From Cryobacterium sp. PH29-G1 (lineage in GTDB: Bacteria > Actinomycetota > Actinomycetes > Actinomycetales > Microbacteriaceae), in assembly GCF_030063365.1 (NCBI RefSeq), contig NZ_JASISY010000011.1, forward strand, positions 1 to 64,000: a stretch of DNA of 64,000 nucleotides, written 5' to 3'. Below the pieces are notes generated by a model. It did not search any database. It saw only the letters and a program-made list of their open reading frames with translations, and was not told where the DNA came from. Position numbers and translations under genes: made by a program. The first letter of the stretch is position 1, and every line of letters begins with the position of its first letter. Of this stretch, positions 19,540-33,496 are shown piece by piece.

Positions 19540-20922
19540 GTGACCGTTTACGCCGTATCCAACCCCGCCACCGGGGAATTCGTGCAGGACTACCCCACGG
19601 CGACGACCGCCGCGGTCGAGGCCGCGGTCAACTCCACGGCAAGAGCCTACGAGACCTGGCGATACTCCGCCATCGCCGATCGGGTGAGCCTGCTGCGCCG
19701 GGTCGCCGAGCTGTACGCGACGCGACGCGACGCTCTTGCCGCCACCATCACCCGTGAAATGGGTAAAACTCTCTCGCAGGCTCGGCTTGAGGTTGACCTC
19801 GTCGTTTCGATCTACACCTACTACGCCGACAACGGTCCGAAATTCCTGCAGGACGAGGTGCTGGACGTCGTCGGCGGAGGAAGCGCTGTGGTGAGAAAAG
19901 AGGGCCTTGGCCCCATCTTCGGCATCATGCCGTGGAACTATCCGTACTACCAGGTCGCTCGTTTCGCCGCGCCCAACCTCATGAACGGCAACACGATCCT
20001 GCTCAAGCATGCCCCCCAATGCCCAGAATCTGCCCTGGCCATTGAACAGATCTTCCGGGATGCCGACGCACCGGACGGCGCCTATGTAAACGTCTTCGCC
20101 ACCAATGATCAGGCCGCCCAGATCATCGCCGACCGCCGTGTTCAGGGTGTCTCGCTGACCGGATCAGAGCGCGCGGGAGCCATCGTGGCGGAGATCGCCG
20201 GACGCAACCTCAAGAAGGTTGTGCTCGAGCTGGGGGGATCCGACGCGTTTGTGGTGTTGGAGTCGGCCGATATCCCGCACGCGGTCGAACAGGCTGTGCT
20301 TGGTCGCTTCGGCAACGCTGGGCAGGCCTGCAACGCGGCCAAACGCTTCATCGTGACCGAGGGCGTCTACGACGACTTTCTCGCGCAGTTCGCCACCGCG
20401 GTTTCCGCCATCGAGGTGGGTGACCCCCGCCTCGCGGAGACGTTCATGGGCCCTATGTCGTCGGTCGGAGCGGTCGATGGGCTCGCCGAACAGGTCGAGG
20501 ACGCCATCGGCAAGGGCGCCACGGTGGTGGTCGGTGGCGCCAGGCTGGAGCAGCCCGGCGCCTGGTACCAGCCGACCATCCTTACCGGAGTGACACCAGA
20601 AATGCGGGCGTACTCGGAAGAGCTGTTCGGTCCGGTCGCTGTGGTGCACCGGGTCGCCTCCGATGATGAGGCCGTTGAACTGGCCAACGCGTCGGTGTAC
20701 GGCCTCGGCGCGGCAATCCAGGCCACCGATCTGGCCGCCGCTGAACGGATGGCGGAGCGTCTGCAGGTGGGAATGGTCACCGTGAACGCGGCCTCCGGCA
20801 CGTCAGCGGAGTTGCCGTTCGGTGGAGTCAAGCGCAGTGGAATCGGCCGGGAGCTGGGCAAGTATGGCATGGAAGAGTTCGTCAACACCAAGCTGCTGCG
20901 CATCGCTGCGATGACCAACTGA
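19540..20922 (+). CDS. NAD(P)-dependent aldehyde dehydrogenase, succinate-semialdehyde dehydrogenase-like
   Basis: A 460-residue ALDH. The catalytic Glu is in VVLELGGSDAFV and the catalytic Cys in GNAGQACNAAKRF; the ITREMGKTLSQA and GIMPWNYPYYQ segments match the short Sad/YneI-type succinate-semialdehyde dehydrogenases. It starts at GTG 19540 with a GAGGAG ribosome-binding site six bases upstream. It is last in the catabolic cluster and would oxidise the aldehyde made by the ThDP enzyme. A 52-bp gap separates it from the M20 gene, still consistent with one transcript. Confidence 0.85.
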   Translation: MTVYAVSNPATGEFVQDYPTATTAAVEAAVNSTARAYETWRYSAIADRVSLLRRVAELYATRRDALAATITREMGKTLSQARLEVDLVVSIYTYYADNGPKFLQDEVLDVVGGGSAVVRKEGLGPIFGIMPWNYPYYQVARFAAPNLMNGNTILLKHAPQCPESALAIEQIFRDADAPDGAYVNVFATNDQAAQIIADRRVQGVSLTGSERAGAIVAEIAGRNLKKVVLELGGSDAFVVLESADIPHAVEQAVLGRFGNAGQACNAAKRFIVTEGVYDDFLAQFATAVSAIEVGDPRLAETFMGPMSSVGAVDGLAEQVEDAIGKGATVVVGGARLEQPGAWYQPTILTGVTPEMRAYSEELFGPVAVVHRVASDDEAVELANASVYGLGAAIQATDLAAAERMAERLQVGMVTVNAASGTSAELPFGGVKRSGIGRELGKYGMEEFVNTKLLRIAAMTN

Positions 20923-20941
20923 TCAAGCGCCCGCGCTGCCG

Positions 20942-21529
20942 TCAGCGCGGCTGCCGCTGCAACCAGGGCCGCAGCATCCGTGTCACCCAGGGCAGTATGA
21001 AATAGGCCATGAGCGGTGTGAGGGCGAGCGTCGTCAGCAGCACTTTGAGTGCGGTCGGGAGGGTGCCCCAGCCCGGCACGAGCCAGGGGATGAGCAGTGT
21101 GAAGGCCAGATTGACCGGAAAAAAACCCAGCCAAATGCTGATGGCTTGTTTCCACCGCGGCGGCGGTAAAAGGGACGGGGCACCGGGCGGTACCTGCTGC
21201 AGGTCGAACCAGCCCTCGATGCCGGTGCGTTTCTCCACCTGGGCGTCAAGAACGAGGTCGGTACCGGCTTCCAACCACTCGGTGCGCTCGTCGGAGTTCT
21301 CCCAGGCCTCGAGGCTTTCGGGGTTGGAGAAGCGATAGAGCATGTTCCAGGTGGCTGAGTCTTCGCTGCCGCGCACCCAGCCCGATCCGAGAAAACCCGG
21401 GTACGTGTGGGCGAGATTGATGCCGAACTGCACCCACTCGCTCGCCTCGGTGAAGCGCTCGGGGTCAACGGTGCGGGTAATGGAAACGGTGACGGATGCT
21501 GACGCCGGCGGGGGTGATGCTGGCATCAC
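20942..21529 (-). CDS. Antibiotic-biosynthesis-monooxygenase-domain protein with C-terminal membrane helices
   Basis: A 195-residue protein. Residues 10-100 form an ABM-type dimeric alpha/beta-barrel domain (ITRTVDPERFTEASEWVQ; YPGFLGSGWVR; NMLYRFSNPESLEAWENSDER). Residues ~128-185 contain two hydrophobic helices, so it is membrane-anchored with the ABM domain probably in the cytoplasm. No catalytic role is established for this architecture. It begins three bases after the xthA stop on the same strand (GTG 21529 or ATG 21526), so the two are co-transcribed. Confidence 0.75.
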   Translation of the reverse strand: MMPASPPPASASVTVSITRTVDPERFTEASEWVQFGINLAHTYPGFLGSGWVRGSEDSATWNMLYRFSNPESLEAWENSDERTEWLEAGTDLVLDAQVEKRTGIEGWFDLQQVPPGAPSLLPPPRWKQAISIWLGFFPVNLAFTLLIPWLVPGWGTLPTALKVLLTTLALTPLMAYFILPWVTRMLRPWLQRQPR

Positions 21530-21532
21530 GCT

Positions 21533-22369
21533 TTAGAAAATCATCGGGCGGTCGTCGTCATCGCCGCCGAGGTCGAGGTCGACCAGCACCGGAACATGAT
21601 CACTCGGGGCATCGCCCTTGCGCTCGTTGCGGTGGATGCTCGCATCCGTCACGAGGTCCGCGAAAGCGGGAGACCCCAGGATGAAGTCGATGCGCATGCC
21701 CTCGTTGCGTGGAAAGCGCAGCTGCTTGTAGTCCCAGAAGGTGAACCCCTCCGGCACGATCGGACGCACGACATCGGCCAGTCCGGCCTGCTCGAACGCA
21801 TCGAACGCTGCGCGCTCGGCCGCCGAAATGTGCGTGGACTGGCCCGGCACAAAGCTGGGGTCGCCCATGTCCTCATCACGCGGAGCGACATTCCAATCGC
21901 CCATCATGGCCAGAGCCAGCGCGGGGTTGGCGGCGAGCTCTTCGGCGGCGTGGGCCTCGAGGGCCTTCAGCCAGGCCAGCTTGTAGGCGTAGTGCGGGTC
22001 GTCGATCGAGCGACCGTTCGGCACGTAGAGGCTCCACAGCCGCAGGTCGTTCACGGTCACGCCGAGGGCACGCGCTTCGAGCGGCTGGTCGGGGCCGACC
22101 GCACCCTTCTCGAAGCCGGGCATCTGCGGAAAGGCGGTGACGACATCCGTCATCGGTTCGCGACTGGCAAACGCCACGCCGTTCCACTGGCTCAGGCCGT
22201 GAATGGCGAGGTCATACCCGGCGTCTTCAAATATCTGCGCCGGAAACTGCTCGGGCTTGCACTTGATCTCCTGCATGGCCAGAACGTCGATGTCTTCGCG
22301 TTCCATCCAATCGACGACTCGCCCGGAGCGGGCACGAATGGAGTTCACGTTCCAGGTGGCGATGCGCAT
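21533..22369 (-). CDS. xthA: Exodeoxyribonuclease III
   Basis: A 278-residue protein of the exonuclease III/AP-endonuclease family. Visible landmarks are MRIATWNVNSIRAR, the metal-binding Glu in AMQEIKCK, the YVPNGRSIDDPHYAYKL loop, GDWNVAPRDEDMG with the catalytic Asp and Asn, RIDFILGS, and the final SDHVPVLVDL with the Asp-His pair. It repairs abasic sites and 3' blocking groups. TAGGCT six bases before the ATG suggests a leaderless transcript, although the intervening bases also read GGAGG. Confidence 0.92.
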   Translation of the reverse strand: MRIATWNVNSIRARSGRVVDWMEREDIDVLAMQEIKCKPEQFPAQIFEDAGYDLAIHGLSQWNGVAFASREPMTDVVTAFPQMPGFEKGAVGPDQPLEARALGVTVNDLRLWSLYVPNGRSIDDPHYAYKLAWLKALEAHAAEELAANPALALAMMGDWNVAPRDEDMGDPSFVPGQSTHISAAERAAFDAFEQAGLADVVRPIVPEGFTFWDYKQLRFPRNEGMRIDFILGSPAFADLVTDASIHRNERKGDAPSDHVPVLVDLDLGGDDDDRPMIF

Positions 22370-22375
22370 GCCTCC

Positions 22376-22381
22376 AGCCTA
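22376..22381 (-). promoter_or_regulatory. Leaderless -10 box of xthA
   Basis: TAGGCT on the minus strand lies six bases before the ATG at 22369. Confidence 0.5.
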
Positions 22382-22485
22382 TAAGGGGTGAAGCGGATGC
22401 CGGCGGTAACGAATGCGCCCAGGCCCGTGTTGCGATTGAATAGACGAAACTGAATCGGTACACACCAACAGGCAGGAAGATCACG

Positions 22486-23487
22486 ATGACCCAGTTGCAG
22501 ATTGGCTACGCGGCCATGTTGGAGCAGTTCGCACCGGCCGAGGCGGTCGCGCTCTCTGCCTATGCCGAGGAACACGGCTTCACCGGCGTGATGGCGGCCG
22601 ATCACTTTCAACCGTGGGTCCCAGCCCAGGGCCAGTCCAGCTTTGTCTGGAGTGTGCTTGCTTCCATCGCCGAGCGCACCAAGGGCGACTTCGGCCCCGG
22701 CGTGACCGCCCCGACCTTTCGCTGGCACCCGGCCATGGTCGCCCAGGCCTCCGCAACTCTCGCCTCGATGTACCCCGGCCGGCACTGGCTCGGACTCGGC
22801 TCCGGCGAAGCGCTGAACGAGCACATCGTCGGCGGCTACTGGCCCGAAGCGCCCGAGCGCATCAACCGCATGTTTGAGGCCATCGAGATCATCTCGAAGC
22901 TGTTCGCCGGTTCGATTGCCGGCAAGGATGTCAAGCACTCCGGCCAGTTCTTCAAGCTCGAGTCGACGCGGCTCTGGACCATGCCCGAGGTCGCCCCCGA
23001 GATTTTGGTCGCCACCGCCGGCCCGGTCACCGCCAAGCGCGCCGGCCGACTCGCCGACGGACTCATCACGGTGGGTGCCCCGCGGGAGAAGATCTCGATG
23101 CTGTTCGGCAAGTTCGACGACGGAGCCCGCGAGGCCGGCAAGGACCCCTCGGCGATGCCGAAGGTGCTGCAACTGCACATGAGCTGGGCCGAGACCGACG
23201 AAGAAGCCATGACCAACGCGCTGCACGAGTGGCCCAACGGCGGCATGAAGTTTCCGAAGGGAGACATCCGTTCGCCGTTCGAGTTTGAGCAGATGGCCAA
23301 ACTCGTGCGCCCCGAAGACTTCGAGGGCCGCATGATCATTTCGGCCGACCCCGACGAACACCGCAAGTACATTCAGAAGTTCGTCGACCTCGGCTTCGAT
23401 CGCATCTACCTGCACAACGTCGGCCGCAATCAGAAGCAGTGGATCGACGTCTTCGGCGCATCCGTTCTGCCGAAGCTCGTTCGGTAG
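22486..23487 (+). CDS. F420-dependent LLM-class oxidoreductase, FGD-like
   Basis: A 333-residue protein of the luciferase-like F420-dependent family. It follows mycobacterial F420-dependent glucose-6-phosphate dehydrogenase along its length: LGY/IGY at the N-terminus, EQFAP, the DHFQPW loop that contacts F420, PTFRWHPA, GLGSGEALNE, and SADPDEH. The best role is F420 reduction using glucose-6-phosphate or a related substrate, though the TIGR03557-type relatives have unknown substrates. It begins an F420 operon: its stop is immediately followed by the ATG of cofE with no gap. An AGGAAG ribosome-binding site lies upstream. Confidence 0.85.
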   Translation: MTQLQIGYAAMLEQFAPAEAVALSAYAEEHGFTGVMAADHFQPWVPAQGQSSFVWSVLASIAERTKGDFGPGVTAPTFRWHPAMVAQASATLASMYPGRHWLGLGSGEALNEHIVGGYWPEAPERINRMFEAIEIISKLFAGSIAGKDVKHSGQFFKLESTRLWTMPEVAPEILVATAGPVTAKRAGRLADGLITVGAPREKISMLFGKFDDGAREAGKDPSAMPKVLQLHMSWAETDEEAMTNALHEWPNGGMKFPKGDIRSPFEFEQMAKLVRPEDFEGRMIISADPDEHRKYIQKFVDLGFDRIYLHNVGRNQKQWIDVFGASVLPKLVR

Positions 23488-24348
23488 ATGACGCACGATT
23501 CGCCGCCGCACGATTCTCGGCCCGACGCGGCGGCCGCCGAAGTCGGGGCCATGGAACTGTTCGGCCTCAAGGTGTTCACGCTCGGCGGTTTCGGCGAGAT
23601 TCGCACCGGCGATGACCTCGCCGCGCTGATTGCGGAGGCCGCGCAGTCGCGTCTGATTGACGGCGATATTGTGGCGGTAACCAGCAAGATCGTTTCCAAA
23701 GCCGAGGGACGTCTTGTCGCAGCGACCGATCGTGAGCAGGCGATCACCGACGAGACCGTGCGCGTCGTCGCGTCGCGCACCCACCCGGGCGGGGTCACTC
23801 GCATCGTGGAAAACCGGCAGGGCCTCGTGATGGCCGCGGCCGGCGTCGACACAAGCAATGCGCCCGACGGTGTGGTGCTGTTGCTTCCGGTTGATCCGGA
23901 TGCGTCGGCGCGCGCCATCTGTGCGGCCCTGCGCGAGCACACCGCGCTGCGGCTCGGCGTGGTGATCACGGACACCGCCGGCCGACCCTGGCGCGAAGGT
24001 CAAACCGATATTGCCATCGGTGCCGCCGGGCTGGCCGTGCTCGATGACCTGCGTGGCACAGTGGATGCCTCCGGGAGGCGCCTCGACGTGACGGTAGCCG
24101 CGGTCGCCGACGAGATCGCCGGCGCCGCCGACCTGGTCAAGGGCAAGACCAGCGGCAATCCCGTTGCGGTCGTGCGCGGACTCGGCCGCCTAGTCGGCGA
24201 ACTCGATAGCGTGGGCGCTCGGGCGCTGCAGCGACCGAGCTCCACCGACATGTTTCGCCTGGGCACCAATGAGGCCTACGCCGATGGCTACGCCGAGGGC
24301 TACGCTGCGGGCTTTGCCGCCGGACGGATCACCGACGAGCTGCGCTAG
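23488..24348 (+). CDS. cofE: Coenzyme F420-0:L-glutamate ligase
   Basis: A 286-residue CofE/FbiB N-domain-type ligase, which adds glutamates to F420-0. Conserved segments include LPEV-like strands ([15 protein letters not shown]), [16 protein letters not shown], the [15 protein letters not shown] stretch, and [21 protein letters not shown]. The C-terminal nitroreductase domain of mycobacterial FbiB is absent, so it is the short, CofE-like form. The C-terminus carries a repetitive [17 protein letters not shown] stretch. It is fused head-to-tail with the FGD-like gene (adjacent stop and start codons), which links it to F420 use. Confidence 0.9.
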
Positions 24349-24356
24349 CGGTACGG

Positions 24357-24737
24357 CTAGATCGTGATGGTGAGTGCCTGGATCAGGCCGCTCTCCGCAT
24401 CAAGCTCGAACCGGTAGTTCAGGTCGACACTGCGGCCCGGAAAGTTGCCCGCAATGCGGTTGACGACGGTCGTTGACGACTCGTCTTTGGCGGTGCGCAG
24501 CAGGGTGGTGGTGTATTCGAACTCGGCGGTGTTGCCGGCGAGCCACGTGGCGATAGCAGCCTCGCCCGTGTACGTCTTGCCGTCGTCGACGACGACCGCG
24601 TTCTCGGTGAAGGTGTGGCGAGCCGAGGCCGGCTTCGCGCTCGCGCTGCGTTCCAGGTAGGTGGTGATCGCCATGGGCAATGCGTGCGCGGTAACAGGCT
24701 GTGCGGTAACAGGCTGCGCGGTGAGTGACTCTGACAT
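24357..24737 (-). CDS. NTF2-like (SnoaL-type) protein
   Basis: A 126-residue protein with an alpha+beta-barrel NTF2-like pattern (TTYLERSASAKPASARHTFTENAVVVDDG, then strands FEYTTTLL and VDLNYRFEL). It is possibly a nuclear-transport-factor-2-like fold with no assigned reaction. It has a strong AGGAGGT ribosome-binding site. The first ~17 residues are a TAQPV duplication coded by a 15-bp repeat. It is convergent with cofE and divergent from cofC, without an obvious functional link. Confidence 0.75.
   Translation of the reverse strand: MSESLTAQPVTAQPVTAHALPMAITTYLERSASAKPASARHTFTENAVVVDDGKTYTGEAAIATWLAGNTAEFEYTTTLLRTAKDESSTTVVNRIAGNFPGRSVDLNYRFELDAESGLIQALTITI
24688..24732 (-). repeat. 15-bp tandem units in the 5' end of the NTF2-like gene
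   Basis: GCGGTAACAGGCTGT (24688-24702) and GCGGTAACAGGCTGC (24703-24717) are followed by a partial third unit. They encode the TAQPV-type N-terminal duplication. Confidence 0.8.
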
Positions 24738-24852
24738 GGGACCTCCTGGGCCGAAATCAACGTAATCGGGTCGACGGATGTGTGCGCTCGACCCTTAAGG
24801 CTACCGCGCGCCAGATCCGGGGTTCACCCCGAACCGAGTGCACGCGCGCTGG

Positions 24853-24858
24853 TAGCGT
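24853..24858 (+). promoter_or_regulatory. Leaderless -10 box of cofC
   Basis: TAGCGT lies seven bases before ATG 24866 and sets the start of cofC. Confidence 0.55.
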
Positions 24859-24865
24859 AGTGCGT

Positions 24866-25564
24866 ATGCCAGCCGCTCGCGCCCCCGCGGCCGGAAGCTG
24901 GGTCTGTGTCGTGCCCGTCAAGGGCAGTGCGAGAGCCAAGAGCCGACTCGGCGAGCTGCCGGAGGACTTCCCCGCTCGACAGCAGCTCGCCCAGGCATTC
25001 GCGCTGGACACCGTCGCGGCATTGCTTGCCGCTTCGCCGGTGGAGGGGGTTCTCGTGGTCACCGCCGACCCCGCCACGGGCACCGCTCTGGCGGCACTGG
25101 GCGCCCAGATCGTGCCAGAGCCACCGGCTGCGCTACCGGGCCTATCCGGCCGGAGCGATTCGCTCAACCTGGCCATCAGCGCGGGGATCCGCGTGGCGAA
25201 CGTGCGCTACCCGCACAGCAACGTTGCGGTGTTCACCGGTGACCTGCCCGCACTCACCGTCGGGGACGTCGAATCGGCGCTTAGCGCGGCTGCAGCCTGC
25301 GATCTCGCCATGGTCGCTGACGAGGAGGGTACCGGAACCACGGTGCTGCTCGCCCGCGCCGGCCTGCCCCTCTTGCCACGGTTTGGGCTGGGATCTCGAG
25401 CGGCCCATGAGGCTGCCGGCCACATTCCGCTCGACCTCCCCACCCACTCGTTGATCCGCCGTGACGTCGATACCGTCGACGACCTCGCCGCGGTGCTGCG
25501 ACGGGGTGTCGGCCCACACACCAGCGCACTGATCGCCCGCGGGCAGCCTGACCGGTTTCGCTGA
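24866..25564 (+). CDS. cofC: 2-phospho-L-lactate (or phosphoenolpyruvate) guanylyltransferase
   Basis: A 232-residue CofC/FbiD protein that activates phospholactate or PEP with GTP for F420-0 synthesis. The N-terminus shows the nucleotidyltransferase VVPVKGSARAKSRL signature; SDSLNLAISAG, the FTGDLPAL metal-binding region and the GTGTTVLLA and RFGLGSRAAHEAAG stretches are family-specific. The upstream frame is open to 24725, but the ATG at 24866 follows a clean leaderless -10 box. It is convergent with cofD: the stops are only six bases apart. Confidence 0.9.
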   Translation: MPAARAPAAGSWVCVVPVKGSARAKSRLGELPEDFPARQQLAQAFALDTVAALLAASPVEGVLVVTADPATGTALAALGAQIVPEPPAALPGLSGRSDSLNLAISAGIRVANVRYPHSNVAVFTGDLPALTVGDVESALSAAAACDLAMVADEEGTGTTVLLARAGLPLLPRFGLGSRAAHEAAGHIPLDLPTHSLIRRDVDTVDDLAAVLRRGVGPHTSALIARGQPDRFR

Positions 25565-25570
25565 TTCCGA

Positions 25571-26554
25571 TCAGGCGCCGAGATCCAATGCTGCCGCTGC
25601 GATCGCGGTTGTGGTGGGCAAGTCGGTCATCCAGAGCGGAACGGCGGTAGAACGGATGCCGGCAGCCGCGAGAACGGGCAGCGCCGCGGCATCCGTGACG
25701 TCAATCAGCCAGGCGTCGAGCAGCCCGCCCGCGGCACGGGCACCGTAGTGCAGCCCGACGGCTTCGGCGGAGGTCGCCACGCCGATGGTGTGCAGGCACG
25801 CGTCGGCCATGCCGCGCACGGCGGCCCCGCCAATGATGGGCGATACCCCCACAACCTGCGCGGGAGTGGACCGGAGGGCAGAACGGATGCCCGGCACCGC
25901 CGTGATCGTTCCGACGGACACCACGGGGTTCGACGGGGGCAGAATGATCAGGTCGGCGTTTTCGATCGCCTCGAGCACTCCCGGCGCGGCCACGGCATCG
26001 GCCAGGCCCACCTGCACGAACTCGGTGACCGCAATGCCGGCGCGGTACCGAACCCACCATTCCTCGAAGTGCATCAGCTCACCGGCTCGGTGCTCGTCAA
26101 TGTCTGCGGCCAGGCGCACATGCGTCTCCACCGGCTGATCGCTCATCGGCAGCAACCGGGCGCCGGGCTGCCAGCGGCGGCAGAGAAAGTCCGTCGCCTC
26201 GCTCAGAGTCGACCCGCTGCGCAGCAGATCGGTGCGCACAATGTGGGTGGCGAGGTCGAGATCGCCCAGCGTGAACCAGGACCAGCCACGGCCATAGGCG
26301 GCGATTTCGGCCGCGGCCCGCCGGGTTTCGGCGGGGCGGCCCCAGCCCTGTTCTTCGTTGATGCCGCCGCCGAGGGTGTACATGACGGTGTCGAGGTCGG
26401 GGCAAATGCGCAGCCCGTCCAGCCACATGTCGTCGCCGGTGTTCACCACCACCGTGACGGCCGCCTCCGGCGCCACCCCGGCGAGGTGGCCCAGCAGCCC
26501 GCGGGTGAACCGGGCGCCGCCAACGCCACCGGCCAAAACGGTCACATTCTTCAT
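25571..26554 (-). CDS. cofD: 2-phospho-L-lactate transferase
   Basis: A 327-residue CofD/FbiA protein, which transfers the phospholactyl (or phosphoenolpyruvyl) group to Fo to give F420-0 (or dehydro-F420-0). The N-terminal TVLAGGVGGARFTRGLLGH is the nucleotide-binding signature; VNTGDDMWLDGLRICPDLDTVMYTLGG follows, and ILPPSNPVVSVGTI lies in the C-terminal half. ATG 26554 overlaps the stop of the upstream ABC ATPase gene (ATGA at 26551-26554). Thus cofD is translationally coupled to the transporter genes, strong context that they handle an F420 precursor. Confidence 0.92.
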   Translation of the reverse strand: MKNVTVLAGGVGGARFTRGLLGHLAGVAPEAAVTVVVNTGDDMWLDGLRICPDLDTVMYTLGGGINEEQGWGRPAETRRAAAEIAAYGRGWSWFTLGDLDLATHIVRTDLLRSGSTLSEATDFLCRRWQPGARLLPMSDQPVETHVRLAADIDEHRAGELMHFEEWWVRYRAGIAVTEFVQVGLADAVAAPGVLEAIENADLIILPPSNPVVSVGTITAVPGIRSALRSTPAQVVGVSPIIGGAAVRGMADACLHTIGVATSAEAVGLHYGARAAGGLLDAWLIDVTDAAALPVLAAAGIRSTAVPLWMTDLPTTTAIAAAALDLGA

Positions 26555-27339
26555 GCGGTGGGCGCCGATACCGCCGCCGAGTACACGATCACCGGATGGC
26601 CGCCGCGGGGATGCTCCAGAATGAAGCAATCCACCCCGTAAACGGCACCAATGATCTCGGGGGTCAGCACCTCGGTTGGCGTACCGCTGGCCACGAGCGC
26701 GCCCCCGTCGAGCAGTAGAATCTGGTCGCAATATGCCGCCGCGAGGTTGAGGTCGTGCAGGGCCATGATCGCCGTCACCCCGAGTTCCCGCACCTGCCCG
26801 AGCAGTGAAAGCTGAGCGCTCACGTCGAGGTGGTTGGTCGGCTCATCCAGCAGCAGCAGGCTCGGCTGCTGCGCCATGGCCCGGGCAATCTGCACGCGCT
26901 GTTGCTGTCCGCCGCTCAAGGTTTGCCAGAAACGGTCGGCCAACGCCGCGGCGCCGACCGCCGCGAGGGCGTCGTACGCGATCGCGCGATCGTCGTCACC
27001 GCTGAAGGAACCCATGAGCCTGGTGCGATGCGGAATGCGCCCGAGCAGCACCACGTCGAGCACGGTCAGCTCCACGCTCGGCGCCGCGTTCTGTTCGAGC
27101 AGGGCGATGCGCCGGGCGGCTTCACGCCGGGGCAGCGACCCGATCGAGACGCCGTCGAGGGCGGCCGTACCGGCATCCGCTGTGTCGATGCCGGCCACGA
27201 GTCGCAGCAGGGTGGACTTGCCCGCGCCGTTCGGCCCGAGCAGTCCGGTGACGCTGCCGGTGGGCAGTGAAGCCGAAATTTCCCGCAAAATCGTGGTGCC
27301 GTCAATGGTGAACGACAGCTTCTCAAGGTCTACGCCCAC
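26551..27339 (-). CDS. ABC transporter ATPase, proposed F420-0 (or Fo) importer
   Basis: A 262-residue FecE/BtuD-type ATPase. Walker A is LLGPNGAGKSTLLRL, the signature is LSGGQQQRVQIARAM, and Walker B is LLLLDEPTNHLD. Sequence type alone would suggest iron-siderophore or cobalamin uptake. The coupling to cofD and closeness to cofE, cofC and an FGD-like gene match the actinobacterial three-gene cassette (TIGR03873/03869/03868) that Haft and Selengut proposed as an F420-0 transporter. It overlaps the permease gene by 10 bp. Confidence 0.8.
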   Translation of the reverse strand: MGVDLEKLSFTIDGTTILREISASLPTGSVTGLLGPNGAGKSTLLRLVAGIDTADAGTAALDGVSIGSLPRREAARRIALLEQNAAPSVELTVLDVVLLGRIPHRTRLMGSFSGDDDRAIAYDALAAVGAAALADRFWQTLSGGQQQRVQIARAMAQQPSLLLLDEPTNHLDVSAQLSLLGQVRELGVTAIMALHDLNLAAAYCDQILLLDGGALVASGTPTEVLTPEIIGAVYGVDCFILEHPRGGHPVIVYSAAVSAPTA

Positions 27340-28361
27340 AGGTGCGACTTCTTTCTCTTGATCAGCAGAATAAACACCGGCACGCCGATGAACGCGGTGA
27401 TAATGCCCACGGGCAGCTCACGCGGATCGAACACGGTGCGGGCTAGGGTGTCGGCGATGACCAGAAACAGCCCACCGCAGACCATGGCGAGCGGCAACAG
27501 CCGACGGTGACCGGGGCCGCTGATGCCGCGCACGAGGTGCGGCAGGATGAGCCCGACGAACCCGATCGACCCGCTCACGGCGACCATCGCGCCGGTCAGC
27601 AGGGCGACCGAACCCAGCAACGCCCAACGGGTGCGATTGACGTTGATGCCCAGGCTCGCCGCCGAGGTATCGCCGAAGGCGAAGGCATCCAGCCGGGTCG
27701 CCGACACGAGGATTCCGGTGCCGACGACCAGTATGGCGGTGGCCGCGATCACCACGTTGTCCCAGGTGGCACCGGCCACCGAGCCGAGCAGCCAGTTGAG
27801 TATCTCCCGATAAGAGTCGCCCTTGGCCGCCCAGAAAATGATGAACGAGGTCAGGGCGCCGGCCAGCTGCGCGATGGCCAGCCCCGCGAGCACGGCCCGC
27901 ACCGGCGTGATCGTGCCGCCGACCCGGGCAATGCTCAGGGTGGCGATCAGGGCCAGCAGCGCGCCGAGAAAGGCGGCTGCGGGCAGGGCGAATCCGATAC
28001 CGAGGATGACCACGCAAACCGCGCCGACGGATGCCCCGCTGGAGAGCCCGAGCAGGTACGGGTCGGCGAGAGGGTTGCGGGTCACGCTCTGCATCACCGC
28101 GCCGCTGAGGGCGAGGCCGGCACCGACCAGCGCGGCCGTGAGCACCCGTGGCAGCCGGAGCTGCCAGACGATCGAGTCGACCAGTATCGGCACCGGAGTA
28201 TCGGTGGGAATGCCGAGATGCGCGCCGATGCTGCCCGCCACCTGGGCCAGGCTGATCGCTGCCGGCCCGATGGTCACCGCCACCAGGCAGCCGAGAATCA
28301 GCGCACCGGTCGCTGCCAGCAGCCAGCCGAAGTACCGCCGCCGACTCAAGTTCTCCCCCAA
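27330..28361 (-). CDS. ABC transporter permease, FecCD family, proposed F420-0 importer
   Basis: A 343-residue integral membrane protein with about ten helices of the FecCD/BtuC type. Typical motifs are PRVLTAALVGAGLALSGAVMQ, NPLADPYLLGLSSGAS, and GFVGLILPHLVRG near the C-terminus. The start is TTG 28361 or TTG 28349; the latter has a GGGGAG site nearby. It pairs with the ATPase gene downstream and the binding protein upstream. A 63-bp palindromic repeat (28367-28429) sits between it and the binding-protein gene and may lower read-through, giving more binding protein than permease. Confidence 0.85.
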   Translation of the reverse strand: MGENLSRRRYFGWLLAATGALILGCLVAVTIGPAAISLAQVAGSIGAHLGIPTDTPVPILVDSIVWQLRLPRVLTAALVGAGLALSGAVMQSVTRNPLADPYLLGLSSGASVGAVCVVILGIGFALPAAAFLGALLALIATLSIARVGGTITPVRAVLAGLAIAQLAGALTSFIIFWAAKGDSYREILNWLLGSVAGATWDNVVIAATAILVVGTGILVSATRLDAFAFGDTSAASLGINVNRTRWALLGSVALLTGAMVAVSGSIGFVGLILPHLVRGISGPGHRRLLPLAMVCGGLFLVIADTLARTVFDPRELPVGIITAFIGVPVFILLIKRKKSHLWA

Positions 28362-28366
28362 CCACC

Positions 28367-28429
28367 CCGCGAGAGCGGGAAATTCGTTGCTTCAGCCCTG
28401 GTGAAGCAACATTTATCCCGCTCTCGCGG
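28367..28429. repeat. 63-bp palindromic repeat, copy 1
   Basis: Outer arms CCGCGAGAGCGGGA and TCCCGCTCTCGCGG with inner arms TTGCTTCA and TGAAGCAA around a variable centre. It lies between the binding-protein and permease genes of the proposed F420-0 importer. The same 63-bp layout recurs at 41371, 53976 and 55038. Confidence 0.9.
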
Positions 28430-28440
28430 CTTGGGGGTGC

Positions 28441-29466
28441 TCACTTATCCAGCGCGGCTAGCTGAGTGATGGCGGAAGAGGCGGCTTCGACGTTACGGAT
28501 GCCGGCCTCGGTGGCGGCGAACGGCAGGATGATGTAGCGCTGGTTCTTCACGGCGTCGAGCACCTGGGTGGCCGGGTCGGACTCGAGGTGGGCGATCTTT
28601 GCTGCGGCGGTGTTCCACGTGGCATCGACGAGCACGATGACACTCGGGTCGGCTTCGATGATTGATTCCCAGCCCGCCGAGGTCCAGGTATCGCTCACGT
28701 TCGCGAAGATATTGCTGAGACCGGCGGCTTCCATAATCATTTGCGGCGAGCCGATGCCGGCACCGACATAGGGGGTGGTCGTGCCGCTGGAATACCAGAG
28801 CGCTGTCGTTTTTTCGGAATTCGCCGGCGTCAAACCGGCGAGGTCGTGCTCGAGCGAGGTGACCAGCGCGGTCGCTGCCGGTTCGGCGCCGAAGATTTTT
28901 CCGGCCTCGTTGATTTCGCTGAAGACCGTCTCGAAGGTGAGCGGGTTCGGCATGAAATCGCCCTTGCAGGCGGCGGGCGACACGTAGCTACCCACGCCGA
29001 GCGTTGTGAGAGCGTCGCGTTCGCCCACGCCGTCGGCGCTGAAGTTGGACTCCCAGCCGCCGTAGATGAAGTCGGGGTTCAGCCCGAGCACGGCCTCCTG
29101 GCCGGGCAGAAAGTCGCTGATCAGGTTGAGGTCGGCGCCCGCAGTGGCCAGCGACTCCGGCAGCGGGCCGTCAAGAAAGGCCGAACCGACGATGCGGTCA
29201 CCGAGGCCGAGCGCGAGCAGTAGCTCGGTTGCCGACGATTTGATCGATACGATGCGTTCCGGCGCGGCCGTGACGGTCACGCTCACTCCGCAGTTGTCGA
29301 CGGTGACCGGGTAGTCGGCGGCAGCGGCGGAGGTGGCGCCGCCGGTCTCGGTCGGCGTGGCACCGGGAGTCACCGCGGCTGCGCATCCGCTGAGCAGCAG
29401 CGTGGCGCAGGTCGCGGCGCTGGTCGCGACGACAATGGCGGAACGACGCACGTTGATTCGGTTCAT
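28441..29466 (-). CDS. ABC transporter substrate-binding lipoprotein, proposed F420-0 (or Fo) binding
   Basis: A 341-residue periplasmic-binding protein of the iron-siderophore/B12 class (PF01497). A lipoprotein signal is visible: basic start, hydrophobic stretch and lipobox LLSG-Cys at about residue 28. The mature part begins with a Thr/Ala-rich linker, then DYPVTVDNCGVSVTVTAAPERIVSIKSSATELLLALGLGDRIVG, the usual fold entry. ATG 29466 is chosen over the upstream ORF limit (29496) because it starts just before the signal peptide. It is first in the transporter operon; the attribution to an F420 precursor rests on context. Confidence 0.8.
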   Translation of the reverse strand: MNRINVRRSAIVVATSAATCATLLLSGCAAAVTPGATPTETGGATSAAAADYPVTVDNCGVSVTVTAAPERIVSIKSSATELLLALGLGDRIVGSAFLDGPLPESLATAGADLNLISDFLPGQEAVLGLNPDFIYGGWESNFSADGVGERDALTTLGVGSYVSPAACKGDFMPNPLTFETVFSEINEAGKIFGAEPAATALVTSLEHDLAGLTPANSEKTTALWYSSGTTTPYVGAGIGSPQMIMEAAGLSNIFANVSDTWTSAGWESIIEADPSVIVLVDATWNTAAAKIAHLESDPATQVLDAVKNQRYIILPFAATEAGIRNVEAASSAITQLAALDK

Positions 29467-29612
29467 GAGGTCTCTTTCGACTGGTCGCGACTCCATGCCG
29501 AAGGCATGCGCGCGAACGGGCGGAATAGTGGTGGACCTCAGCCCAAATCCAGGCCTGCAAAACCGATCAAAGCAAACCGGTGGTCTGGCTCAACCCTAGG
29601 CCCCCGGCAGCC

Positions 29613-30980
29613 CTACGACCACCTGGCACCCACCGCGTGCACGGCCGAATCAAACGGATGCGCCGCAGCCGCCAGCGCCTCGGCCACCGGGATGACGTCG
29701 TCGGGCAGGGCGCCGGCGGTCACTCGAATGAACTCGGGTCCGCCCTCCGTGGCCGAAAACGGCGACCCGCCGGCGACGCGGATCCCCGAGGCGGCGAGGC
29801 GCACCATGGCGTCGCGCTCGTTTTGCACGGGCAGCCAGGTGTTGATGCCGTCGGCCTGCACGACGTCGAGTCCGCAGTCAGTCAGCGCCTCGGCGAGGGC
29901 TCGCTGGCGGGCGAAGTAGATGCGGCGGGCCTCGCTGACCTGCGCCATGCTCTCACCGTTGGTGAGCAGATCGTGCAGGATCGTTTGCAGCATGCGACTG
30001 GTCCACCCGGGGCCGAGCATGCGCCGCGACACGATCGGGTCGATGAGCGCGGCCGGCCCGCCGAGCGCGGCCATGCGCAGGTCGGGGCCGTGCGACTTCG
30101 AGAAGCTGCGCACGTGCACGGTGCGGCGCGGCAACCAGAGACCGAGACTCACCACGGGGGCGATGCTGATGTCGGCGGAGTGGTCGTCTTCGATGACGAT
30201 GGTCTCGGCGCTCGCCGGCGTGCTGCGCAGGAGGCGGGCGAGTTGCTCGGCCCGCTGCGCGGTCATCGAAGCTCCGGTGGGGTTTTGCGCCCGGGGTTGC
30301 AGCAGCACGACGGCCGGACCGAGCTTGAGTGCTCGGGCAAAATCGTTCGGAATGATGCCGTGCTCGTCGATGGCCACCGGCAGGCGTTCCAGGCCGAGTT
30401 GGTCGAGCAGGTCGAAGAACGGTGGAAACGACGGGTTCTCCACGATGACGCGGTCGCCGAACCGGGTCACCGCATCGAGGGTGCGGGAGATCGCATCGAG
30501 GGCACCGTCGACGATCGTGATGGTCTCGACCGCGTAGGGCCACTCCGATCGCAGCACCTCGAGCAGTTCCGGAATGATCGGCAGATCCTGGTAGCTCGGG
30601 GTCACCGCACGCTGGGCGACCCTGGAGAGCGCCGGTCCGAGCGCCGGCAGCAGCAACGGGTCCGGCGTGCCGCGCGAGAGGTCGAGACGAGTCGGTGCGC
30701 TCGAGCCAATCATGGACTGACTGCGGGCCGGCAACCACTTAGGCGCAGCATCCTGCACGAACGTGCCACCCCGCCCACGCGACACGATCAGGCCGACGGC
30801 CGAGAGGGCCTGCCAGGCGTGGCTGACCGTTGCCGGGCTCACGCCGAGCTCGCCGGCCAGTACCCGCACCGTGGGCAGACGGTCGCCCGGCGCGAGGCGA
30901 CCGGACGCGATCTGCCGCCCGATGGCCGCGGCGATCCCCGCCGGGGTGCGTTGCTCGATTTCATCAATAAAGTTCTGCAT
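29613..30980 (-). CDS. MocR-type regulator (GntR helix-turn-helix fused to PLP aminotransferase fold)
   Basis: A 455-residue protein. Residues 10-75 are a GntR winged helix (GDRLPTVRVLAGELGVSPATVSHAWQALSAVG); residues ~100-450 form a class I aminotransferase-like domain with IVDGALDAISRTL, QPRAQNPTGASMT, EDDHSADI and the PLP-lysine region RSFSKSHGPDLR. MocR proteins sense PLP or amino compounds; others control GABA, taurine or pyrimidine genes. It is divergent from the pyrimidine-degradation cluster and is the probable regulator. Two palindromes in the shared intergenic region (31043-31055, 31075-31094) are candidate sites. Confidence 0.88.
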   Translation of the reverse strand: MQNFIDEIEQRTPAGIAAAIGRQIASGRLAPGDRLPTVRVLAGELGVSPATVSHAWQALSAVGLIVSRGRGGTFVQDAAPKWLPARSQSMIGSSAPTRLDLSRGTPDPLLLPALGPALSRVAQRAVTPSYQDLPIIPELLEVLRSEWPYAVETITIVDGALDAISRTLDAVTRFGDRVIVENPSFPPFFDLLDQLGLERLPVAIDEHGIIPNDFARALKLGPAVVLLQPRAQNPTGASMTAQRAEQLARLLRSTPASAETIVIEDDHSADISIAPVVSLGLWLPRRTVHVRSFSKSHGPDLRMAALGGPAALIDPIVSRRMLGPGWTSRMLQTILHDLLTNGESMAQVSEARRIYFARQRALAEALTDCGLDVVQADGINTWLPVQNERDAMVRLAASGIRVAGGSPFSATEGGPEFIRVTAGALPDDVIPVAEALAAAAHPFDSAVHAVGARWS

Positions 30981-31042
30981 TGCTCTTGCCCCTGAGTGCG
31001 TTGGACGACAGGATGATTAATGCGTGCGTTACACAGAGAAAC

Positions 31043-31055
31043 ACATTTGAAATGT
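31043..31055. promoter_or_regulatory. Palindrome in the MocR/beta-ureidopropionase promoter region
   Basis: ACATTTGAAATGT is a perfect 13-bp palindrome in an unusually AT-rich 152-bp gap between divergent genes. Confidence 0.45.
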
Positions 31056-31074
31056 TTACGTCAAATAATAACAA

Positions 31075-31094
31075 TACGAACAGCGCGGTTCGTA
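31075..31094. promoter_or_regulatory. Inverted repeat upstream of the beta-ureidopropionase gene
   Basis: TACGAAC and GTTCGTA are perfect 7-bp arms with a six-base spacer, 39 bp before the ATG at 31133. It is a candidate operator for the MocR regulator. Confidence 0.5.
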
Positions 31095-31132
31095 ACGACC
31101 CTTGACTAACCGAAGCAAGTGGAAGGCACAGC

Positions 31133-32011
31133 ATGAGCACGGTTCCCACGAACACCGACAACAATCAGATTGTTCGAACCGCCATCACCCAGGCCACCTG
31201 GACCGGCGACGAAGAATCCATGATCGTCAAGCACGAAGGGTTCGTTCGCACCGCGGCAGCCCAGGGCGTGCAGGTTATCTGCTTTCAAGAACTCTTTCAC
31301 GGCCCGTATTTCGGCATCGTGCAGGACTCCAAGTACTACGACTACGCTCAGGCCGTTCCCGGCCCCATCGTCGAGCGGTTTGCGAAGCTCGCCGCCGAGT
31401 ACAAGATGGTCATCGTCGTGCCGCTGTACGAAGAAGACCAGCCCGGCGTGCTCTACAACACCGCCGCGGTCATCGACGCTGACGGAACCTACCTCGGCAA
31501 GTACCGCAAACACCACATCCCCCACCTGCCGCAGTTCTGGGAGAAGTTCTACTTTCGCCCCGGCAACCTGGACTACCCGGTCTTCGACACCGCCTACGGC
31601 AAGATCGGCGTGTACATCTGCTACGACCGCCATTTCCCGGAAGGTTGGCGGGCGCTCGGCCTGAACGGCGCCGAGATCGTCTTCAACCCCTCCGCAACCA
31701 AGCCCGGCCTGTCCAACCGCCTGTGGGAGCTCGAACAGCCGGCCGCCGCGGTCGCCAACCAGTATTACGTCGGCGCGAACAACCGCATCGGCAACGAGGA
31801 AGCCGAATTCGGCGACGAGGCGGTGACCTTCTACGGCAGTTCCTACTTCGTTGACCCCAAGGGCAACTACGTGGGCGAGCGCGCATCCACCGACACCGAG
31901 GAGATTCTCGTGCGCGACCTCGATCTCGGCGTGATCCGCGAGGTACGCAACTCCTGGCAGTTCTACCGCGACCGTCGCCCCGACTCCTACGGACCCCTCG
32001 TCGCGCCGTAA
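31133..32011 (+). CDS. Beta-ureidopropionase (nitrilase superfamily)
   Basis: A 292-residue carbon-nitrogen hydrolase. The catalytic triad is clear: Glu53 (CFQELF), Lys126 (KYRKHHIP) and Cys163 (VYICYDRHFPEGWR). The CYDRHFPEGWR and NPSATKPGLSNRLWELEQPA segments are those of beta-ureidopropionases, which convert N-carbamoyl-beta-alanine to beta-alanine, CO2 and ammonia. Dihydropyrimidinase follows 15 bp downstream and would supply its substrate. It is cytoplasmic, first gene of the pyrimidine cluster. Confidence 0.9.
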   Translation: MSTVPTNTDNNQIVRTAITQATWTGDEESMIVKHEGFVRTAAAQGVQVICFQELFHGPYFGIVQDSKYYDYAQAVPGPIVERFAKLAAEYKMVIVVPLYEEDQPGVLYNTAAVIDADGTYLGKYRKHHIPHLPQFWEKFYFRPGNLDYPVFDTAYGKIGVYICYDRHFPEGWRALGLNGAEIVFNPSATKPGLSNRLWELEQPAAAVANQYYVGANNRIGNEEAEFGDEAVTFYGSSYFVDPKGNYVGERASTDTEEILVRDLDLGVIREVRNSWQFYRDRRPDSYGPLVAP

Positions 32012-32026
32012 ATAGAGAGGACTGCC

Positions 32027-33487
32027 ATGAAGACTTTGATTAAGAACGGCACCGTGGTCAACGCCACGGGACGCGGCCTCGCCGACGTGCTCATCGACGG
32101 CGAAAAAATCGCCGCGGTGCTCGCACCCGGCTCCACCCTGCTCGGATTCGACGTGGCGGGCAACGTTGACCGTGTCATCGATGCCCGCGGAAAGTACGTG
32201 ATTCCCGGGGGTATCGACGCCCACACCCACATGGAGATGCCGTTTGGCGGCACCCAGGCCAGCGACACGTTCGAAACGGGCACCCGCGCCGCCGCGTGGG
32301 GCGGCACCACGAGCATCGTGGATTTCGTCGTGCAGTATGCCGGTGAAGACGTGCTCGAGCGCTACGCCACCTGGCAGCAGAAGGCCGCCGGCCAGTGCGC
32401 GATCGACTACGGCTTTCATCAGATCCTCTCCGACGTGCAAGACAGCTCGCTGACCGCGATGGACGAACTCGTCAACGAAGGCGTGTCGAGCTTCAAACTG
32501 TTCATGGCCTACAAAGGCGTCTTTCTCAGCGACGACGGCCAAATCGTCAAGGCCATGCAGCGCGCCGCCACGAACGGCAGCATGATCATGATGCACGCCG
32601 AAAACGGCAGCGTCATCGACCTGCTCGTGCAGCAGGCAGTCGCCGCCGGCAACACGAGCCCGCTCTACCACGGTCTCACCCGGCCCTGGCAGGCCGAGGA
32701 AGAAGCCACCCACCGCGCGATCATGCTCGCCAACCTCACCGGTGCTCCGCTCTATATCGTGCACGTCTCGGCCAAGCAGGCCGTGGACCAGATCGCCCAG
32801 GCCCGCGACAACGGTCAGAACGTGTTCGGCGAGACCTGCCCGCAGTACCTCTACCTCTCGCTCGAGGACAACCTCGGCGCCGAGAGCGAAGAGTGGGGCA
32901 GCTTCGAGGGGGCCAAGTGGGTCTGCTCGACACCACTGCGCGCCAAGGCCGAGGGGCACCAGCACCACATGTGGCAGAGCCTGCGCACGAACGACATTCA
33001 AATGGTCTCCACCGACCACTGCCCGTTTTGCATGAAGGGTCAGAAAGATATGGGCCTGACTGACTTCTCCAAGATCCCCAACGGCATCGGCTCGGTCGAA
33101 CACCGCATGGATCTCTTGTATCAGGGCGTGGTCGACGGCAAAATCTCGCTTGAACGCTGGGTCGAGGTGTGCTCCACCACCCCGGCGCGCATGTTCGGCA
33201 TGTACGGCCAGAAGGGCGTGATCGCCCCCGGTGCCGACGGCGACGTCGTGGTCTACGACCCGAACGGGCACACGTCCATTGGTGTTGCCGTCGACGCTCG
33301 CGGCGAGCAAACGGGACGTACCCACCACATGAACATGGACTATTCCGCCTGGGAAGGCTACGAGATCGACGGCCACGTCGACACCGTGATCTCCCGCGGC
33401 AAGGTCGTCATTGATGACAATGCCTATCTCGGCACCAAGGGTGACGGTCGCTACATCAAGCGCGGCCTGAGCCAGTACCTCATCTAG
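32027..33487 (+). CDS. hydA: Dihydropyrimidinase / hydantoinase
   Basis: A 486-residue cyclic-amidohydrolase. Visible are the metal ligands in GGIDAHTHMEMPFGG, the SFKLFMAYKG lysine expected to be carbamylated, MHAENGSVIDLL, VHVSAKQAVD, the TCPQYLYLS loop and the STDHCPF aspartate. It opens dihydrouracil to N-carbamoyl-beta-alanine. It lies between the gene for the next pathway enzyme (beta-ureidopropionase) and an LLM oxidoreductase gene nine bases downstream. Length is normal for the family. Confidence 0.93.
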   Translation: MKTLIKNGTVVNATGRGLADVLIDGEKIAAVLAPGSTLLGFDVAGNVDRVIDARGKYVIPGGIDAHTHMEMPFGGTQASDTFETGTRAAAWGGTTSIVDFVVQYAGEDVLERYATWQQKAAGQCAIDYGFHQILSDVQDSSLTAMDELVNEGVSSFKLFMAYKGVFLSDDGQIVKAMQRAATNGSMIMMHAENGSVIDLLVQQAVAAGNTSPLYHGLTRPWQAEEEATHRAIMLANLTGAPLYIVHVSAKQAVDQIAQARDNGQNVFGETCPQYLYLSLEDNLGAESEEWGSFEGAKWVCSTPLRAKAEGHQHHMWQSLRTNDIQMVSTDHCPFCMKGQKDMGLTDFSKIPNGIGSVEHRMDLLYQGVVDGKISLERWVEVCSTTPARMFGMYGQKGVIAPGADGDVVVYDPNGHTSIGVAVDARGEQTGRTHHMNMDYSAWEGYEIDGHVDTVISRGKVVIDDNAYLGTKGDGRYIKRGLSQYLI

Positions 33488-33496
33488 GGAGCAGAG

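What the first reader, a model, noticed from the sequence alone, without database searches (positions are those of the whole stretch)
22486..29466. F420 locus carrying both late F420 synthesis genes and a proposed F420-0 importer: is the cargo really Fo?
Seen: an FGD-like gene and cofE are fused end to end; cofC and cofD converge; cofD overlaps the ATPase gene of a FecCD-type ABC importer (ATGA). Known: TIGR03868/03869/03873 define an actinobacterial importer proposed to carry F420-0, based on genomes that mostly had only cofE. Inference: here cofC and cofD are present too, so importing F420-0 would make them redundant. If the genome lacks Fo synthase (fbiC or cofG/cofH), the transported molecule is better explained as Fo, which cofD would then extend.
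Basis: partly seen in the sequence, partly recalled or inferred. Interest (0 to 1): 0.82.

Follow-up and report, generated by a model that had tools for sequence, protein, structure and literature searches.

The report
Importer replaces deazaflavin-making enzyme in Cryobacterium
A Cryobacterium seems to import the fluorescent core of the cofactor F420 instead of making it and to finish the molecule itself; among 299 genomes of its family, none was found to have both the importer and the core-making enzyme.

Summary
The locus is real: an F420-type LLM oxidoreductase, cofE, cofC, cofD and a FecCD-type importer (window 22486-29466, Cryobacterium). "Fused" is wrong: LLM and cofE abut. No FO synthase was found in the genome (99.93% complete); the one weak CofH hit reads as biotin synthase.

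I tested the idea on 299 Microbacteriaceae genomes. The importer is in 91 and FO synthase in 68, never together, alternating within six genera (one rests on a gene fragment). All 91 importer genomes have cofE; 60 also have both cofC and cofD, 31 have neither. All 31 genomes with cofE but no cofD carry the importer. So the importer stands in for FO synthase, and FO is the best explanation of the cargo in Cryobacterium.

"FO rather than F420-0" is only part of the story. cofE-only genomes could use F420-0 but not FO, yet their importers are interspersed on the tree with the others and share most binding-protein motifs. Best reading: one importer family that recognises the deazaflavin core and accepts FO, F420-0 or both. 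Outside Microbacteriaceae 6 importer genomes also have FO synthase hits, so the exclusion is not universal. No binding or uptake was measured. New variant of a known family.

The parts
22486..23487 (+). LLM-class F420-dependent oxidoreductase (TIGR03557 family; FGD-like but not the FGD equivalog); probable user of the cofactor
   Evidence: PF00296, TIGR03557 over cut-off; median dN/dS 0.055 in Cryobacterium
23488..24348 (+). cofE, F420-0:gamma-glutamyl ligase, 286 aa, without the C-terminal reductase domain of FbiB; starts directly after the LLM stop codon
   Evidence: the match to NF009810 (449 positions) covers only profile positions 12-257; that this is the FbiB model is recalled
24857..25564 (+). 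cofC, phospholactate/PEP guanylyltransferase (TIGR03552 over cut-off); start codon not determined (the open frame begins at 24725)
   Evidence: median dN/dS 0.30
25571..26554 (-). cofD/fbiA, transferase that extends FO to F420-0 or dehydro-F420-0
   Evidence: closest solved structure FbiA 6UVX at E 2.6e-105; equivalents of the FbiA metal ligands, D41 and D53, in 84 of 84 CofD aligned; median dN/dS 0.17
26551..27339 (-). importer ATPase (TIGR03873 is the best family, score below its cut-off); overlaps the cofD start by ATGA
27330..28361 (-). importer permease, FecCD/BtuC type (TIGR03869 over cut-off)
28441..29466 (-). importer substrate-binding protein (TIGR03868 over cut-off); read as a lipoprotein from its LLLSGC signal end; an in-frame ATG also lies at 29496
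24357..24737 (-). small ORF (126 aa) between cofE and cofC; no family match; found in many but not all Cryobacterium loci; membership in the system doubtful

Best explanation
This is an F420-precursor salvage locus. The lipoprotein captures the deazaflavin core FO, which F420-producing neighbours release, and the FecCD-type permease and ATPase bring it in. CofC and CofD then add the phospholactyl/phosphoenolpyruvyl group, CofE adds glutamates, and F420-dependent enzymes such as the adjacent LLM protein use the product. The importer stands in for the missing FO synthase. Shown here: the genes, no detectable FO synthase in this genome, the family-wide exclusion between importer and FO synthase, retention of cofC and cofD under purifying selection, and shared binding-protein motifs. 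Inferred: that FO is the molecule transported, the direction of transport, and the metabolic order. Uptake of F420-0 by the same importer is not excluded and is probable in relatives with cofE alone.
For: No cofG hit and no cofH in a 99.93% complete genome; the single 27.9-bit hit reads as biotin synthase (the name is my reading of the sequence). Of 299 Microbacteriaceae, 91 have the importer, 68 have an FO synthase hit and 0 have both. The states alternate inside six genera; the chance of no overlap under random assignment within them is 7e-6 (genomes treated as independent), or 3.5e-5 without g77, whose FO synthase is a 267-aa fragment. 19 of 20 sampled FO synthase hits have the CofG domain over its cut-off. 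A recheck at E 0.001 of 80 genomes, 59 of them importer+cofD, gave only three hits of 19-31 bits. cofC is in 60 of 60 importer+cofD genomes and 0 of 31 cofE-only genomes. cofD lies within 8 kb of the importer in 51 of 59 fetched loci and directly after the ATPase in 35. Median dN/dS in Cryobacterium: cofD 0.17, cofC 0.30, no internal stops. FO is reported in supernatants of F420 producers at micromolar level (PMC11917521, passages seen).
Against: No binding or uptake data. 31 of 91 importer genomes have only cofE and could not use FO, and their importers are interspersed with the others (at least 10 changes in Microbacteriaceae). Outside Microbacteriaceae, 6 importer genomes also have FO synthase hits (4 Promicromonospora, Sanguibacter, Arthrobacter; 6 of the 48 importer genomes, which include Microbacteriaceae); Promicromonospora citrea has importer and cofD but no cofE hit. 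6 of 299 genomes have cofC, cofD and cofE but neither FO synthase nor this importer. FO is described as membrane permeable (PMC11917521, passage), so import may not be strictly needed. CofE lacks the FbiB reductase domain, so how dehydro-F420-0 would be reduced is open.
Confidence: 0.68

Rival explanations
1. The importer carries F420-0 everywhere, as NCBIfam names it. In Cryobacterium CofC and CofD only repair or re-tail the cofactor (for example re-extend FO arising from hydrolysed F420-0), or are relics.
For: 31 of 91 importer genomes keep only cofE. Importers of both kinds share most conserved motifs and are mixed on the tree. All 91 importer genomes of the family survey have cofE.
Against: cofC and cofD are kept or lost together (60 of 60 and 0 of 31), evolve under purifying selection in Cryobacterium, often sit beside the importer (51 of 59 within 8 kb, 35 directly after the ATPase), and CofD keeps its metal-binding Asp (84 of 84). 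Relics would decay; a repair role would not by itself predict exclusion with FO synthase.
Confidence: 0.15
2. FO is made in these genomes by an unknown, unrelated synthase, and the importer carries something else.
For: 6 of 299 genomes have cofC, cofD and cofE with neither FO synthase nor importer, so another source of FO, inside or outside the cell, must exist there.
Against: It does not explain why importer and FO synthase exclude each other (0 of 159 genomes with either), or why the importer of the family survey occurs only with cofE (91 of 91).
Confidence: 0.06
3. The cargo is unrelated to F420 (siderophore, haem or cobalamin), and the linkage is coincidence.
For: Fold and permease belong to the siderophore/haem/B12 class; a sister family scores about equally with a siderophore-binding model (EitA, under its cut-off).
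Against: In the family survey the importer was found only in genomes with cofE (91 of 91), whereas 18 of the 23 weaker matches are in genomes without cofD or cofE hits, and the six of them fetched differ at five strand-end motifs. Devosia carries the importer next to cofE too.
Confidence: 0.05
4. Two cargo classes: importers of cofC/cofD genomes are FO-specific and those of cofE-only genomes F420-0-specific, switched by a few residues at binding-protein positions 282, 286 and 289.
For: In Microbacteriaceae A282 in 60 of 60 cofCD genomes but S in 19 of 31 cofE-only; K289 in 2 of 60 against 20 of 31; S286 in 3 of 60 against 15 of 31. Cellulomonas (cofE-only, two genomes) reads S, S, K, as does Jonesia 4MLZ.
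Against: With clade blocks permuted the strongest single column is not unusual (25% of 1000 permutations reach it) and the best 9-residue window is borderline (5% of 300). Outside the family the pattern is mixed: most Devosia (cofE-only) read A, S, Q; L050 (cofE-only) S, T, H; Pseudactinotalea (cofD) S, S, H; Arthrobacter (cofD and FO synthase) S, T, K.
Confidence: 0.2

Closest known systems
NCBIfam TIGR03868/TIGR03869/TIGR03873, putative F420-0 ABC importer
   Same: Binding protein and permease score over the curated cut-offs; the ATPase's best family is TIGR03873. Linked to cofE and an LLM gene.
   Different: ATPase under its cut-off. cofC and cofD are present and cofD follows the ATPase, which fits FO as cargo rather than F420-0. 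The family is also in Devosia (Alphaproteobacteria), whereas the family text that I recall speaks of Actinobacteria.
Solved structure 4MLZ, binding protein of Jonesia denitrificans
   Different: At 282/286/289 it reads S, S, K, like many cofE-only genomes. That Jonesia is cofE-only is recalled from the TIGR03868 text. No paper naming 4MLZ in the held library.
Mycobacterial FbiA/FbiB/FbiC/FbiD pathway
   Same: CofD matches FbiA 6UVX (E 2.6e-105); CofC and CofE correspond to FbiD and the FbiB ligase domain.
   Different: No FbiC found; an importer instead; CofE lacks the FbiB reductase domain.
BtuFCD and haem importers (FecCD class)
   Same: Same fold and architecture; works like them.
   Different: Linked to F420 genes, not B12 or haem genes.
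EitA-like sister importer in Microbacteriaceae
   Same: Permease 48-50% and ATPase 48-52% identical in six fetched loci; binding protein shares DNCG and SP..C.
   Different: Binding protein 35-39% identical; five strand-end motifs replaced: DQ for KS, SFGR for GWES, ADT for SSG, QGDR for WNTA, HGAELN for PF..xEAG.

Membership tests
TIGR03868 (putative F420-0 ABC transporter substrate-binding protein) | score over curated cut-off | tested here: met
   412.0 against 392.4
TIGR03869 (putative F420-0 ABC transporter permease) | score over curated cut-off | tested here: met
   464.8 against 437.35
TIGR03873 (putative F420-0 ABC transporter ATPase) | score over curated cut-off | tested here: not met
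   334.4 against 372.4, though the best-scoring family; not filed as a member of this equivalog, only as working like it
F420-0 importer (proposed function) | transports F420-0 | not testable with these tools
   needs binding or uptake; comparative evidence favours FO in genomes with cofC and cofD
F420 pathway, late steps (cofC, cofD, cofE) | equivalog cut-offs of TIGR03552, TIGR01819, TIGR01916 | tested here: met
   128.6/105, 334.2/257.45, 237.3/180.65; CofD Asp41 and Asp53, equivalent to FbiA Asp45 and Asp57
F420 pathway, FO synthase (cofG/cofH/fbiC) | a gene matching TIGR03550 and TIGR03551 in this genome | tested here: not met
   0 hits for TIGR03550; one 27.9-bit TIGR03551 hit that reads as BioB
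FGD (TIGR03554) | score over curated cut-off | tested here: not met
   214 against 420; over the cut-off of TIGR03557 instead
FbiB (bifunctional ligase and dehydro-F420-0 reductase) | C-terminal nitroreductase-fold domain | tested here: not met
   CofE is 286 aa and matches only profile positions 12-257 of 449 of NF009810

The most novel reading that the evidence does not exclude
One importer family recognises the deazaflavin core and takes up both FO and F420-0, and has replaced FO synthase repeatedly. Lineages move stepwise from making F420 fully, to importing FO and finishing it (cofC, cofD, cofE), to importing F420-0 and adding only glutamates (cofE). FO and F420-0 would then be traded vitamins among actinobacteria and, through horizontal transfer, of Devosia.
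Probability: 0.45. Interest if true: 0.75.

Novelty: new variant of a known kind. Interest (0 to 1): 0.62.

Why it matters
The importer carries the name F420-0 as a 'putative' function, and I found no experimental paper on it in the held library (searches; subscription papers are mostly not held). The family-wide pattern (0 genomes with both importer and FO synthase among 299; cofC and cofD kept or lost as a pair) makes the cargo question testable with one binding assay. If right, FO, which F420 producers are reported to release, is a shared nutrient, many bacteria annotated as F420 users are FO or F420-0 auxotrophs, and the importer could feed FO into engineered F420 producers.

Tried and rejected
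Rfam scan of window 20000-34000: no match at the gathering thresholds, so no riboswitch evidence. MocR regulator, ureidopropionase and hydantoinase next to the importer: they tend to stay together where the importer's cof neighbours differ, so I treat them as neighbours, not parts. Two separate importer clades for FO and F420-0: not supported by the tree (at least 13 changes among 107 labelled rows of 112; 100 shuffles gave 23-39, mean 33.4; SH-aLRT support only, long branches flagged, direction of change not inferable). Specificity residues 282/286/289: suggestive, not significant for single columns. Alternative FO importer next to cof genes in the six genomes without FO synthase or importer: 10 selected proteins scanned, none obvious except an oligopeptide-type ABC system beside cofC in L218; L215 was not scanned. 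Pocket geometry: no model coordinates were available to my scripts, so pocket statements rest on secondary structure and conservation.

Thresholds and rows dropped. FO synthase was counted at E 1e-40 against TIGR03551; only 17 of 68 pass that model's own cut-off. Of these 68 I fetched 20, all from hits under that cut-off: 19 of 20 have the CofG domain over its cut-off and 801-1060 bits to the CofGH model NF006687 (cut-off 1018, passed by 6 of 20); the twentieth, G229, is a 267-aa fragment on a 7.9-kb contig. The other 48 were not rescanned, except G136 (1480 bits); a protein taken from L110 was a wrong-strand ORF and matched nothing. 23 of 114 binding-protein matches (145-233 bits) were not counted as importer. 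5 of these 23 genomes have FO synthase (G121, G200, G250, G288, G302), so counting them would give 5 co-occurrences; the other 18 have no cofD or cofE hit. I fetched those 5 and one of the 18 (G210): 35-39% identity and five replaced motifs; the other 17 were judged on score and missing cofD/cofE alone. G095 (hit split in two) was counted as importer. L069 and L072 (33-34% identity) were left out of the 48-genome counts. Only 50 of the 71 loci's genomes were searched whole. Not rechecked for FO synthase at E 0.001: 16 of the 31 cofE-only genomes. Of the FO synthase hits outside Microbacteriaceae, Arthrobacter (1305 bits) and Sanguibacter (1024) pass the CofGH cut-off, one Promicromonospora is just under it (1001), one is split into pieces (G013), and two were not scanned.
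Full report
Observation. The seven genes are confirmed at the stated coordinates. LLM and cofE abut (TAG then ATG) and are not fused. cofC and cofD converge with 6 bases between them; cofD and the ATPase overlap as ATGA. Binding protein, permease, cofC, cofD and cofE pass their NCBIfam cut-offs; the ATPase falls under the TIGR03873 cut-off although that is its best family. The LLM protein belongs to TIGR03557 and is not an FGD equivalog.

The genome. The window lies in a 3.80 Mb genome of 31 contigs, 99.93% complete. Its nearest relatives in the named genome collection, by the binding protein, are Cryobacterium. TIGR03550 gives no hit. TIGR03551 gives one 27.9-bit hit in a protein that I read as biotin synthase. 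So no FO synthase was found.

Conservation. A scan of genome contigs with the binding protein gave 71 loci, 25 of them Cryobacterium. cofD is beside the importer in 25 of 25 of these; cofC, cofE and the LLM gene are on 24 of 25. In the exception, L026, they are not within the 10 kb downstream and cofE is on another contig. In Devosia, an alphaproteobacterium, the order is a different LLM gene (32-34% identical), cofE, importer. In Cryobacterium the median pairwise dN/dS is 0.17 for cofD, 0.30 for cofC, 0.16 for cofE, 0.23 for the binding protein, 0.17 for the permease and 0.055 for the LLM gene, with no internal stops. The CofD Asp residues equivalent to FbiA Asp45 and Asp57 (metal ligands according to PMC8498797, passages seen; alignment) are present in 84 of 84 CofD sequences.

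Family survey. I searched 299 Microbacteriaceae genomes (the window's own included), at least 90% complete and drawn evenly from the family, for the binding protein, CofH/FbiC, CofD, CofE and CofC. Importer: 91. FO synthase hit: 68. Both: 0. All 91 importer genomes have cofE; 60 have cofD and cofC; 31 have neither. All 31 genomes with cofE but no cofD have the importer. 67 of 68 FO-synthase genomes have cofD. Six genomes have cofD and cofE without either source; none of the six has this importer's permease over its cut-off. Among the 165 genomes with any of the four genes Fisher's p is 8e-40, but this ignores kinship. Within the six genera that hold both states the product probability of no overlap is 7e-6; leaving out g77, where the FO synthase is a fragment, it is 3.5e-5. 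A recheck at E 0.001 in 80 genomes (6 orphans, 59 importer+cofD, 15 cofE-only) gave only three hits of 19-31 bits. In genus g35 one member (G151) has the importer between cofC and cofE, while G084 and G204 have cofD, cofC and cofE side by side and FO synthase elsewhere (coordinates).

Are the FO synthase hits FO synthases? Only 17 of 68 pass the TIGR03551 cut-off. I fetched 20 of those under it, chosen from the mixed genera, the weakest hits and the genomes with a weak binding-protein match. 19 of 20 carry the CofG domain far over its cut-off (445-489 bits against 213.35) and score 801-1060 bits with the CofGH model; one (G229) is a fragment.

The importer cut-off. 23 weaker binding-protein matches were not counted; 5 of them are in FO-synthase genomes and 18 in genomes with no cofD or cofE hit. 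The six fetched belong to an EitA-like sister importer in which five strand-end motifs are replaced, while others such as DNCG and SP..C are shared. In the 91 counted importers, by contrast, [IV]KS is in 91, GWES in 91, W[YFW]SSG in 90, Trp284 in 90 and [PD]F in 91; 39 columns are invariant in a 53-sequence alignment that mixes both kinds and includes Devosia and others.

Beyond the sample. Of 50 genomes behind the named loci, 48 carry the real importer; this set includes Microbacteriaceae. FO synthase hits are in 6 of 48, none of them Microbacteriaceae (4 Promicromonospora, Sanguibacter, Arthrobacter; checked in part). cofD is over its cut-off in 27, plus one that lies in two frames (Pseudolysinimonas, L059); cofE is in 47. 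All 16 Devosia/Hyphomicrobiales importer genomes searched have cofE and neither cofD nor FO synthase. The exclusion is therefore strict in the Microbacteriaceae sample and a tendency elsewhere.

Mechanism. FO is reported at micromolar levels in culture supernatants of Streptomyces, Mycobacterium and Rhodococcus and is described as membrane permeable (PMC11917521, passages, citing older work); it is also reported in the supernatant of Mycetohabitans rhizoxinica (PMC11104420, passages). So FO is available outside, and an importer would help at low concentration. CofD uses FO as its acceptor; with no FO synthase, cofC and cofD make most sense if FO enters. That cofC and cofD are kept or lost as a pair, and that cofE is always kept in the family sample, fits import of FO in 60 genomes and of F420-0 in 31. 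PEP-based CofC/CofD would give dehydro-F420-0, whose reductase is the FbiB C-terminal domain in mycobacteria (PMC6450877, passages); the CofE here lacks it, so that step is open.

Known or new. The importer family is known by a putative name. I found no paper on it in the held library. The account of TIGR03868 (five defining organisms, mostly cofE only, Jonesia among them) is recalled. What is new here is the family-wide replacement pattern and the case for FO. It is a new variant of a known kind.

Noticed in passing
L034, L035, L039, L041, L042, L044, L047, L048, L051, L053, L056-L058, L061-L063, L065, L066: The importer, cofE and a different LLM gene lie together in Devosia and one Hyphomicrobiales record (Alphaproteobacteria), which looks like horizontal transfer of an F420-0 salvage cassette to a group outside Actinobacteria.
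   Followed up: partly
L214-L219 (genomes G064, G074, G099, G190, G199, G281): Six Microbacteriaceae genomes have cofC, cofD and cofE but neither FO synthase nor this importer; one (L218:4000-7334) has an oligopeptide-type ABC system beside cofC. They may take FO by diffusion or another carrier.
   Followed up: partly
L059:8177-9105: cofD of Pseudolysinimonas lies in two different reading frames beside the importer: either a frameshift in the record or a cofD on the way out.
   Followed up: no
L230-L235: A sister importer (EitA-like; binding protein 35-39%, permease 48-50% identical) in six fetched loci; up to 23 of 299 Microbacteriaceae genomes have such a match, 18 of them without cofD or cofE. 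Cargo unknown.
   Followed up: partly
window 29613-33487: A MocR-type regulator, ureidopropionase-like and hydantoinase-like genes lie upstream of the importer and recur there in many Microbacteriaceae; in one Cellulomonas and one Promicromonospora locus the last two recur.
   Followed up: partly
window 24357-24737: 126-aa ORF with no Pfam or NCBIfam match, between cofE and cofC in many but not all Cryobacterium loci.
   Followed up: partly
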